NCBI GenBank assembly: GCA_015832175.1
Contig: WJXW01000015.1
Location: 1,178,001-1,242,000, forward strand
Source of the DNA: Paraphaeosphaeria minitans
Taxonomy: Eukaryota > Ascomycota > Dothideomycetes > Pleosporales > Didymosphaeriaceae
DNA length: 64,000 nt
Direction: 5' to 3'
Every line of letters starts with the position of its first letter. The stretch's first letter is position 1. Positions 30,965 through 33,036 of this stretch are shown here, piece by piece. Below the pieces are notes generated by a model that saw nothing but the letters and a program-made list of their open reading frames with translations, searched no databases and was not told where the DNA came from. Made by a program: the position numbers and the translations under genes.

Positions 30965-32857
30965 TTACCCTACCCCTTCGCACGGTAGTAGAGTCGCATC
31001 GCGCGATAAGGCTCTTTCCAGGCATGTGTCCTGTGCGCAAACAGAAGGTGGGGTGTTGAGCAATGCGATGCTCGGCGCTGGGTCTCGGCAAGCAGGTATA
31101 GAAGGATCGCTCCCAGTCGTGCGATGAAGGTATGCAGTAGAAGTGAGGTATGAGGTAGCCTTCTGTGCTTCTTCTTCATCACTCCATTGGTCTTGTTCAT
31201 CTTCCTCCTCTTTCGTGCGATGGTCTTCTTCCTCTGGCTCTCCTTCAAAGTCAAGGATGTATGCTTGTACATCTATAGCAGAGGGTTCATGTTCGTAGAA
31301 GTCGGCGTACGACGACATGTATTGCCTTCTAGCTCGCTGGGTATCCCTTGGTGGATGGTTGGTGGACCAGCATCCTTCTTTGTGGCACACAAAGCATTTC
31401 TGCTTCGTGCGAGAGCTTGAACTTCTGAAGTTGCCCCTTCCTTTTGGTCTAAAGGTTGATCTGCCTCTAGAGGGGCCAGATCCTCTCGTGCGATTAGGAT
31501 TGTTGTATCGTCGATCAGTGTAGTACACCTCTTCACTGTCTTGGAGGAACTGTGACTTCTTCCTGTCTTCAGCAACTTGGAGTGACGCACGAAGGTCGCT
31601 GAGCAAGCCTTCTACTGTGTTTTTGGGGTTGAACATAGCTTGTTCAAGGTCAGGATGGCCGCGGCATGCTCGTACGATAGTGGTGTGTAGTTGTAGTTCA
31701 CCACTAAAGCCTTGTCCAAGAGCCCTTTGGGCTAAGGTGAGCTTGTCAATCATTGCTTCCAGGGCCTCGTGCGATGTAGCAGCTGGATTATCCCTTTTAT
31801 AGCGTTCAAAGGTAAGAGTGGTCCAGTCTGTCCAGTACTGATTGTGATTGACACTGGTGTTAAAGTGCCTGTTCAGTCTGTCGTACAATTCATCCCATGG
31901 AAGTCCTGGTCCAATGTTGTGTAGGTAGTAGGTGCTCGCACGATCAGAAAGGATTCCTGGGAAGATGTTTGCATACTGGTCCTGTGGTATGCCCAGCCTG
32001 TAGCATAGTTCTCTAAAGACTTTTGCCTTGTCTGCCAGGATGTCGTACGGCCTACCAGTGTAGTTATTCTCTTTACTCCAAGCCTTCTGAAAGAGAATGA
32101 TCTTGTCTGGCTGGATATAAGCATGATCTCCTGGTTGTTGAGGAGACTGGGAGTGTCTAGCCTCTTCGTACGATGTGGTTTGTCGGGCAAAAGCAGTCTG
32201 GGTTTCAGGCTGCTGCCACTGGTGTGGCTCCACATATGGTGTCTCTGTCCTCGCACGTATAGGGATGGGCCCCAGCTGTGCTCCATGTGTATATGCATTG
32301 CCTGCAGATGGTGTAGGTTGCATTGTTGGGATCGTGCGAAGCGGTTCGGGTTGCGGTTGCGGAGTCATCGTGCGAAGGGTCTGTAGCTTATAGTCAAGCT
32401 GTGACAGTTTGAAGAGTTTCTTTGCATGGGTGTCCTTTGTTGTAGAATCAGTAGCGACAAAGCCTTCCTTTGTAAGAAAAGCAATAAGCTCTCTTCTTGC
32501 CGCACGACTAATCTCATCAAAGGTTCTCTCCTTCCAGTCGTTAAAATCTTCAGCAAAAGAAGAGATTACCTCTTCACCTTCAAGGCTGCTCGCGCGATAT
32601 TGCGCGATTATGTACACTGCATAAGTGTTCAGCCGTTTTGGAGAAGGGGGTGGGTGGCTGTGTAGATCCACTCTGTCCACCCAGTACTTTCGTGCGATCT
32701 CTCCTCTTAAGGTGATAGCCTTGATGTTTGTTGCTTCCTCCACTTGTTGAAGCCATATTGCTTCGGCTTCGTCTTTCTGCTGAGGAGGCAGTATTGATTG
32801 TTGCGCGACGTCCTCAGGTTGTAGTTCCTCTGGGAAGTCTCCTAGTCTTGAGGCCAT
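30965..32857 (-). CDS. Gag protein of the gag-only element
   Basis: 630 residues, ATG at 32857 and TAA at 30965. The N-terminal third is Gln/Glu-rich, and the centre (about residues 255-430, for example KAKVFRELCYRLGIPQDQYA and YWTDWTTLTFERYKRDNP) is the capsid-like helical domain of fungal retrotransposon Gags. An Arg/Gly/Ser-rich RNA-binding segment (RGSGPSRGRSTFRPKGRGN) precedes a knuckle CFVCHKEGCWSTNH (CX2CX4CX4H, a variant of CCHC). The C terminus is very acidic and then ends in a Cys-containing tail. No stop or frameshift interrupts it. Several overlapping frames are also open, probably a by-product of the repeated GC-rich motif. Confidence 0.88.
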   Translation of the reverse strand: MASRLGDFPEELQPEDVAQQSILPPQQKDEAEAIWLQQVEEATNIKAITLRGEIARKYWVDRVDLHSHPPPSPKRLNTYAVYIIAQYRASSLEGEEVISSFAEDFNDWKERTFDEISRAARRELIAFLTKEGFVATDSTTKDTHAKKLFKLSQLDYKLQTLRTMTPQPQPEPLRTIPTMQPTPSAGNAYTHGAQLGPIPIRARTETPYVEPHQWQQPETQTAFARQTTSYEEARHSQSPQQPGDHAYIQPDKIILFQKAWSKENNYTGRPYDILADKAKVFRELCYRLGIPQDQYANIFPGILSDRASTYYLHNIGPGLPWDELYDRLNRHFNTSVNHNQYWTDWTTLTFERYKRDNPAATSHEALEAMIDKLTLAQRALGQGFSGELQLHTTIVRACRGHPDLEQAMFNPKNTVEGLLSDLRASLQVAEDRKKSQFLQDSEEVYYTDRRYNNPNRTRGSGPSRGRSTFRPKGRGNFRSSSSRTKQKCFVCHKEGCWSTNHPPRDTQRARRQYMSSYADFYEHEPSAIDVQAYILDFEGEPEEEDHRTKEEEDEQDQWSDEEEAQKATSYLTSTAYLHRTTGSDPSIPACRDPAPSIALLNTPPSVCAQDTCLERALSRDATLLPCEGVG

Positions 32858-33036
32858 GTTGTTGTTGTCTTTCTTGGTCGTGCGACGTGTCTGCGTTTGG
32901 TTGTCGCTGGTTCAATCGTGCGACGTGTTTGCGTTCGGTTGTCGCTGGTTCAATCGTGCGACGTGTTTTTCGGGGTTGTGAATGTGCTCACTATCTCCTT
33001 TCTTTTCTGTAGAATAGCTTAGACTAGATCGTGCGA
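30999..33036. repeat. Interspersed TCGYRCGA palindrome array
   Basis: Exact copies start at 30999, 31117, 31213, 31405, 31486, 31670, 31767, 31936, 32166, 32332, 32368, 32590, 32690, 32878, 32916, 32954 and 33029. At least eight more sites differ by one base (for example 32600, 32800, 33071 and two in each LTR). Spacing is irregular (36-320 bp) except three copies in a 38-bp tandem repeat at 32878-32991, just upstream of the gag ATG. The copies fall in different codon phases, so the protein does not explain them. Confidence 0.9.

What the first reader, a model, noticed from the sequence alone, without database searches (positions are those of the whole stretch)
30999..33036. Dense interspersed palindrome array TCGYRCGA across a gag-only LTR element
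Seventeen exact copies in about 2 kb, with about eight one-base variants including two in each LTR. Random expectation for four 8-mers in 2 kb is about 0.1. Copies lie in all codon phases, so they are not a by-product of protein sequence, and they continue into the untranslated leader as a 38-bp tandem repeat. The nearest analogy I know is Arabidopsis VANDAL elements, where an anti-silencing protein binds short motifs that have multiplied through the element. Here the array may recruit a protein (Gag, a helper's protein or a host factor), act in packaging or counter silencing. The function is inference.
Basis: partly seen in the sequence, partly recalled or inferred. Interest (0 to 1): 0.87.

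Follow-up and report, generated by a model that had tools for sequence, protein, structure and literature searches.

The report
Eight-base site written into transposon gene
A fungal jumping element carries a short symmetrical DNA word, TCGYRCGA, at almost every place where its protein code permits it, which points to strong selection for a dispersed set of binding sites whose reader is not yet known.

Summary
The array is real: all 17 exact TCGYRCGA of the 64-kb window lie in one LTR element (30460-33506). It is not a protein by-product. The Gag protein permits the word at 16 places and 13 carry it. Nine other long ORFs of the window permit it at 27 places and carry it at 0. Thr codon ACG occurs six times, all inside sites, and in 0 of 42 Thr codons outside.

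The element is a pol-deleted derivative of a GalEa-like Ty1/copia element in what is very probably Paraphaeosphaeria minitans. Of 70 scored gag places only two lack stops. The other copies differ almost only by RIP, so their lack of the word is erosion, not refutation. Three RIPped pol-bearing copies keep sites in pol.

In 13 long Gag-Pol relatives from other sources, peptides permitting TCG-YR-CGA are enriched (arm first of 64 in 11 of 13). In two Talaromyces relatives they are not.

Best reading: a selected, dispersed array for a dimeric DNA-binding protein, probably aiding transcription or countering silencing. The binder is unknown. VANDAL is an analogy, not a membership.

The parts
30460..30772 (-). 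3' LTR (sense strand is minus), TG...CA ends, three one-base variants of the word (30512, 30559, 30750)
33195..33506 (-). 5' LTR, one 1-bp indel different from the other LTR; three one-base variants (33247, 33293, 33484)
30455..30459 (.). target-site duplication TATAT, left copy
33507..33511 (.). target-site duplication TATAT, right copy
30965..32857 (-). gag ORF, 630 aa, zinc knuckle C2C4C4H; carries 13 of the 17 sites
   Evidence: no Pfam match above cut-off; homologous to fungal Gag-Pol
32858..33194 (-). untranslated leader with 4 sites
32878..32968 (-). 38-bp tandem repeat in the leader, each unit starting with TCGTGCGA on the + strand
32992..33105 (-). about 114-bp leader segment, single here, duplicated in most other full copies (BLAST pieces overlap there)
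33186..33194 (-). CTAATTAGT directly after the 5' LTR, equal to CHSeq1 of fungal GalEa elements
   Evidence: PMC5445492 section 10
31113..31116 (-). joint where about 4.2 kb of pol is missing relative to pol-bearing copy L044; the two L044 alignments overlap by 4 bp (CCAG)
   Evidence: the L045 alignment stops 5 bp short of the overlap
30999..31006 (.). site TCGCGCGA
31117..31124 (.). site TCGTGCGA
31213..31220. site TCGTGCGA (hit by C>T in the C19 copy)
31405..31412 (.). site TCGTGCGA
31486..31493 (.). site TCGTGCGA; first letter is C in 3 of the aligned copies
31670..31677 (.). site TCGTACGA
31767..31774 (.). site TCGTGCGA
31936..31943 (.). site TCGCACGA
32166..32173 (.). site TCGTACGA
32332..32339 (.). 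site TCGTGCGA
32368..32375 (.). site TCGTGCGA
32590..32597 (.). site TCGCGCGA
32690..32697 (.). site TCGTGCGA
32878..32885 (.). site TCGTGCGA, leader
32916..32923 (.). site TCGTGCGA, leader
32954..32961 (.). site TCGTGCGA, leader
33029..33036 (.). site TCGTGCGA, leader

Best explanation
The element carries a dispersed array of binding sites for a sequence-specific protein that reads double-stranded DNA as a symmetrical dimer on TCG-YR-CGA. Selection on transposition success has placed the site at nearly every position where the Gag protein tolerates it, by choosing codons, and in the leader by tandem duplication. Once bound along the element the protein most likely raises transcription of the element or keeps its chromatin open (enhancer or anti-silencing action). 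The binder is more likely a host protein than one of the element's own, because no extra gene was recognised in the pol-bearing relatives. Shown: the array, its independence of protein and of codon use, its presence in pol of pol-bearing relatives. Inferred: DNA-level reading, dimer, transcription or chromatin as the purpose, a host binder.
For: Saturation: 13 of 16 permitted places carry the word, against 0 of 27 in nine other long ORFs of the window (Fisher 1.5e-8). Codon choice bends to the word: ACG is 6 of 7 Thr codons inside sites and 0 of 42 outside; CGC is 8 of 12 Arg codons inside and 2 of 36 outside. Shuffles reach at most 6. Flanks of sites are unrelated outside the leader repeat, so sites arose one by one. 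Dyad symmetry: arms are palindromic, all four centres CA, TG, TA and CG occur, and one-base variants fall evenly on the two halves (C>T at 2 five times, G>A at 7 six times; none at 3 to 6), as expected for dimer reading of DNA. The 12:1 orientation of CA/TG centres in coding sites follows the peptides: all six permitted Arg-Thr places use CGC ACG (CA), and of five Arg-Ala pairs written CGY GCG four are CGT GCG (TG). Pol of three RIPped pol-bearing copies keeps 3, 1 and 5 exact sites at six distinct positions, while the seven other CpG-bearing palindromic arms give 1 in total. Long Gag-Pol relatives from other sources favour peptides that permit this arm: first of 64 in 11 of 13. The centre classes TA 3.06, TG 2.92 and CA 2.2 times expectation are high, against 0.58 to 1.14 for RY centres.
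Against: No binder is known and no expression or chromatin data were available. Array spread over the whole body is more than a promoter-near enhancer needs. Central CA is oriented 12:1 with the sense strand, which leaves an RNA reading open; in the few noncoding sites all clear CA/TG centres point the same way. Genome-wide, close pairs of the word number 34 against 20 for the reversed control, many of the 34 being this family, so a host regulon using paired sites is not apparent. In the cross-species test TC and TT centres also score above CA or CG (2.35, 2.11), and by pooled ratio arm TCA is slightly above TCG (2.53 against 2.34). Many of the relatives' permitting peptides are shared by descent; lineage-specific ones are only modestly in excess (78 against 63.2, z 2.3, still first of 64).
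Confidence: 0.5

Rival explanations
1. The word acts in RNA: UCGCACGA repeated along the genomic RNA is a dispersed packaging or assembly signal read by Gag or another RNA-binding protein.
For: 12 of 13 sites with a CA or TG centre carry CA on the sense strand; GCACGA is 14 sense against 3 antisense in the element. Sites run through leader, gag and pol, as a dispersed packaging signal would. The gag-only element keeps just the leader, Gag and LTRs.
Against: Predicted accessibility of the 17 sites is not higher than that of GC-matched 8-mers (mean 0.024 against 0.036; P 0.69). Palindromic arms and evenly placed half-site variants have no reason in single-stranded RNA. The orientation bias in coding sites is largely dictated by the peptides used.
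Confidence: 0.2
2. The sites are DNA-level but serve another step, such as tethering or targeting of integration, nuclear positioning, insulation, or recombination between copies.
For: All evidence for DNA-level reading applies. Some copies lie beside further LTR or element pieces (L005, L026, L028, L032, L038), and L044 appears to lie inside a RIPped Gypsy copy.
Against: No test here links sites to insertion places; copies are spread over many contigs. The window's own insertion left a plain 5-bp duplication in AT-rich DNA.
Confidence: 0.15
3. The word marks CpG pairs that escaped decay: the element lost CpG elsewhere (o/e 0.5 outside sites) and bound or context-protected words remained.
For: CpG is depleted outside sites and Thr ACG is absent there. 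Eleven of 18 near-sites are one CpG transition away. In RIPped copies the central CpA of sites is hit less often than other GCA (0.217 against 0.478).
Against: CpG letters inside sites are hit by RIP as often as outside (0.489 against 0.462). Protection cannot create 13 of 16 permitted places from ordinary codon use, and other ORFs of the window show 0 of 27.
Confidence: 0.08
4. Chance or a by-product of protein sequence and codon bias.
For: The pattern was picked after reading the sequence; the protein is rich in permitting peptides (16 against 4.1 in residue shuffles).
Against: Unbiased 8-mer scan, codon shuffles, other ORFs of the window and codon tables all speak against it.
Confidence: 0.02

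Closest known systems
Arabidopsis VANDAL21 target motif of VANC21 (YAGTATTAY)
   Same: Short word at high density through a transposon, rare elsewhere; in VANDAL21 often in one orientation (PMC5735166, passages seen).
   Different: VANDALs are DNA transposons that encode the binder; VANC sites lie mainly in noncoding regions and multiply by tandem repeats (PMC5735166 and PMC10398659, passages). Here it is an LTR element, no binder gene was recognised, 13 of 17 sites are coding, and only the leader shows tandem multiplication.
Drosophila gypsy Su(Hw) insulator array and copia leader enhancer repeats (recalled, not tested; for copia only passages of PMC2443393 on MOF at the leader were seen)
   Same: Host protein binding sites repeated in the transcribed leader of LTR elements.
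   Different: As recalled, those arrays are confined to the leader; here the word runs through gag and, in relatives, pol, and dictates codon choice.
Fungal GalEa clade of Ty1/copia elements
   Same: Zinc knuckle C2C4C4H, TGT...CA LTRs, 5-bp duplication, CTAATTAGT after the 5' LTR (PMC5445492, section 10 read).
   Different: This copy lacks pol; the second hairpin half CHSeq2 was not found. Section 10 of the paper and the passages seen mention no interspersed word.
Non-autonomous gag-bearing LTR elements of plants (TR-GAG; search listing only)
   Same: LTR element that keeps gag and has lost pol.
   Different: Fungal, derived from a GalEa-like element still recognisable in the same genome, with the word array.

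Membership tests
Fungal GalEa (Ty1/copia) | Gag zinc knuckle C(2)C(4)C(4)H | tested here: met
   CFVCHKEGCWSTNH in the gag ORF; definition from PMC5445492 section 10
Fungal GalEa (Ty1/copia) | LTRs bordered by TGT and CA, 5-bp target duplication | tested here: met
   LTRs 313 and 312 bp, just above the paper's usual 138 to 311 bp
Fungal GalEa (Ty1/copia) | CHSeq1 (CTGATCAGT or CTAATTAGT) right after the 5' LTR | tested here: met
Fungal GalEa (Ty1/copia) | CHSeq2, inverse complement of CHSeq1 with an A/A mismatch, 12 to 41 bp on | tested here: not met
   exact form absent; the only 9-mer within 2 mismatches is GCAAACTAG; a different hairpin folds there. Hence 'GalEa-like', not filed as a full member
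Fungal GalEa (Ty1/copia) | Single gag-pol ORF with copia-order integrase and RVT_2 | tested here: inconclusive
   absent in the window copy (pol deleted). RIPped pol-bearing copies match P0016 (rve and RVT_2, both below Pfam's cut-off) over residues 2-739 and about 800-990, with stops in all 46 scored places
VANDAL / VANC anti-silencing | Mutator-like DNA transposon encoding a VANC protein | tested here: not met
   LTR element with gag only; no further gene recognised in the 1 kb behind RNase H of pol-bearing copies
VANDAL / VANC anti-silencing | Motif array mainly noncoding, grown by tandem repeats | tested here: not met
   13 of 17 in the gag ORF; only three leader sites lie in tandem repeats
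VANDAL / VANC anti-silencing | Sequence-specific loss of silent marks by a binder | not testable with these tools
   no chromatin data
Shield against RIP | Copies bearing the array escape RIP | tested here: not met
   68 of 70 scored gag places carry stops; 616 of 628 site-by-copy comparisons are compatible with the window's words plus RIP

The most novel reading that the evidence does not exclude
TCGYRCGA is a clade-wide cis-acting word of GalEa-like copia elements of Pezizomycotina. An element-bound or host dimer recognises it along the whole element. Selection for the word has shaped not only codons but also the amino-acid sequence of Gag-Pol in many species, making these polyproteins partly a transcript of a DNA-binding array: an LTR-element counterpart of VANC-type anti-silencing written inside coding sequence.
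Probability: 0.35. Interest if true: 0.92.

Novelty: new variant of a known kind. Interest (0 to 1): 0.8.

Why it matters
Transposons with repeated protein-binding words are known, but mostly in leaders or other noncoding DNA. Here a dyad word fills nearly all positions that the protein allows, so codon choice, and perhaps amino-acid choice, is subordinate to a DNA signal. If confirmed, it gives a direct handle (DAP-seq, pulldown) on how fungal copia elements are activated or escape silencing, and a general method: ask at how many protein-permitted places a word is realised. It also shows how RIP can make a real cis-element look absent from nearly all copies.

Tried and rejected
RIP shield: rejected, since almost all bearers are RIPped. 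CpG protection inside sites: no overall difference (0.489 against 0.462), though the central CpA is hit less (0.217 against 0.478 for other GCA) and by context TCG is lower inside (0.624 against 0.738) while ACG and GCG are higher (0.464 against 0.310; 0.291 against 0.208); left open as a small effect. RNA loop accessibility: no signal. Second family in the genome with the array: two of the other pair sites were read (L039, L042) and hold only the two sites that brought them in; the remaining pair sites were not read. Element-encoded binder: a low-stop frame behind RNase H in three pol-bearing copies gave no homologue and no Pfam match above cut-off for its pieces; not settled. DNA of relatives from other species: none found in viral contigs or genome contigs; neither collection is meant to hold fungi, so this says nothing about fungi. 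Literature for the word: 'TCGTGCGA' in 194 papers, 20 listed, none on transposons by title; two or more of five spellings in 3 papers, none on transposons by title; searches listed no paper on such an array by title or start of abstract. PMC11481914 (MoIsw2, passages only) reports palindromic motifs at Magnaporthe retrotransposons; the motif letters were not in the passages, so no comparison could be made. Structure prediction and fold search were not used.

Full report
What is there. The window is G000:C15:1178001-1242000 of a 47.45-Mb fungal genome. A homologue of the Gag protein, PMIN01_13425 of Paraphaeosphaeria minitans, lies on a contig of 597067 bases, exactly the length of contig C19 of this genome, which holds the second stop-free copy. 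The organism is therefore very probably P. minitans (Pleosporales). The element spans 30460-33506 on the minus strand, with LTRs of 313 and 312 bp, TG...CA ends and a TATAT duplication on both sides. It encodes one 630-aa Gag with a zinc knuckle and no Pfam match above cut-off.

Family. Gag is homologous to fungal Gag-Pol proteins. The knuckle spacing C2C4C4H and the CTAATTAGT after the 5' LTR are those of fungal GalEa copia elements (PMC5445492, section 10 read). The second hairpin half, CHSeq2, was not found, so I call the element GalEa-like. In the same genome, copy L044 has gag, about 4.2 kb of pol and LTRs. Its two alignments to the window element meet at 31113-31116 with a 4-bp overlap. 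The gag-only element thus looks like a pol deletion, and the last 46 or so residues of its Gag come from the region behind pol. Of 70 scored gag places, 54 run across that joint (gag-only type) and 16 stop at residue 584 or 585 (pol-bearing type); these are lower bounds. A search with the L044 pol region gave 35 places and one with P0016 gave 46, each with stops.

Why other copies lack the word. Among 39 aligned loci, 16213 of 16486 base differences from the window copy (98.3%) are C>T or G>A. By context, CpA is hit in 0.621, CpG in 0.457, CpC and CpT in about 0.04 (L014 and L038 overlap, so one copy is counted twice there). At the 17 sites, 616 of 628 site-by-copy comparisons are compatible with the window's word plus RIP and 92 are still exact (L002 and L014 left out). 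The 12 incompatible ones are gaps in the leader repeat plus a few real differences: three copies have C as first letter at 31486, so that site is polymorphic. Random 8-mers are as compatible (14556 of 14738). Hence the copies descend from almost the same sequence and carry no independent evidence on the word; RIP erased it. The C19 copy also has 17 exact sites: it has lost the one at 31213 by C>T and, I infer, gained one in the duplicated leader segment.

Is it more than chance and protein? Yes. TCGCACGA is the top 8-mer of the internal region, 13 against 0.1 expected. In seven other window regions the best 8-mers have 3 to 7 copies, with expectations of 0.03 to 1.12. Codon permutation reaches at most 6 and junction-preserving permutation at most 5, against 13. 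The protein permits the word at 16 places; 13 carry it, and two of the three misses are one letter off. Nine other long ORFs of the window (two FunCo1-like copia pairs, a Gypsy pair, a DDE transposase and two others) permit 27 and carry 0. Inside sites Thr is ACG in 6 of 7 codons, outside in 0 of 42; Arg is CGC in 8 of 12 inside and 2 of 36 outside.

Shape of the word. All four YR centres occur. The 18 one-base variants fall at positions 1, 2, 7 and 8 only, 11 being C>T at 2 or G>A at 7. This even use of both halves fits a dimer on double-stranded DNA. The variants could also be sites decayed by CpG transition; I cannot separate the two. The sense-strand bias (12 CA to 1 TG) is mostly set by peptides: all six permitted Arg-Thr places are CGC ACG, while four of the five Arg-Ala pairs written CGY GCG are CGT GCG. 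Predicted RNA accessibility of sites is ordinary.

Pol-bearing relatives. In pol of three RIPped copies (L044, L045, L046) exact words number 3, 1 and 5, at six distinct positions. The other seven palindromic arms that contain CpG give 1, 0 and 0 together. Among all 64 arms, TTG (14) and TTA (11) exceed TCG (9); TTGYRCAA is what RIP makes of TCGYRCGA at both ends. Allowing one RIP hit, TCG has 13, 11 and 14 near-sites. Arm CCG has 24, 20 and 22, but its degenerate pattern includes that of TCG; the other six CpG arms have 0 to 3.

Other species, protein level only. For each of 64 palindromic arms I counted peptides that could encode arm-YR-arm, against residue shuffles. In the window Gag, TCG is first (16 against about 4). 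In 18 mostly partial homologues it is first in 8, and its pooled ratio 2.6 is the highest; but P0018, P0013, P0007 and P0011 rank it 48, 24, 11 and 10. In 13 long Gag-Pol proteins (1366 to 1785 aa, P0020 to P0032) it is first in 11, second in P0032 and fourth in P0030. In two Talaromyces relatives it ranks 57 and 59. Six copia and Gypsy proteins of the window rank it 14 to 63. Pooled over all 15 long proteins, TCA has a slightly higher ratio (2.53) than TCG (2.34) on a quarter of the counts. By centre, TA, TG and CA score 3.06, 2.92 and 2.2, CG 1.79, RY centres 0.58 to 1.14; TC and TT reach 2.35 and 2.11. Much of the excess is shared by descent. Sites private to one sequence are 78 against 63.2 (z 2.3, first of 64), and distinct alignment sites 101 against 83.2 (first of 64). 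This suggests, without DNA, that the word is an old feature of this clade.

Mechanism. I commit to a DNA-bound dimer acting on transcription or silencing (0.5), with RNA packaging next (0.2). The gag-only element can hardly supply a dedicated binder, and none was recognised in its pol-bearing relatives, so a host protein is the simplest source. The array does not avert RIP.

Compared with the known. VANC sites in VANDALs are the nearest case, but are mainly noncoding and grow by tandem repeats (PMC5735166 and PMC10398659, passages). Su(Hw) sites in gypsy and repeats in the copia leader are recalled parallels. I found no report of a word that saturates the coding sequence of an LTR element (searches; titles and starts of abstracts only).

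Noticed in passing
window 23813-28554 and 34469-39383: Two long-open copia elements with the FunCo1 primer site ATTAAGAGTCT (23813, 34469) and open gag and pol frames; no TCGYRCGA in either.
   Followed up: partly
window 47005-52229: Gypsy element with open gag and pol, chromodomain at the end of pol.
   Followed up: partly
window 55428-56501 and 59530-62058: DDE_1 transposase-like ORF, and an 842-aa ORF with an OrsD match.
   Followed up: no
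L002 (C19 copy), window-equivalent 31427-31458: Eight C>T/G>A differences from the window copy crowd into 32 bp of an otherwise 99% identical, stop-free copy: a local mutation cluster.
   Followed up: no
L044 1-600 and from 7852: The pol-bearing copy appears to sit inside a RIPped copy of a Gypsy element whose integrase resembles that at window 48894-52229.
   Followed up: no
L044 about 6300-7270, and the same part of L045 and L046: About 1 kb behind RNase H has one frame with far fewer stops than the others in all three copies; no homologue or confident Pfam match found.
   Followed up: partly
window 33159-33180: A strong small hairpin (GUGGUUGAU UCUA AUCAACUGC in RNA) just behind CHSeq1 replaces the expected CHSeq2 pairing.
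   Followed up: partly
window 30579-30729 and 33313-33463: 74-bp tandem duplication within each LTR.
   Followed up: no
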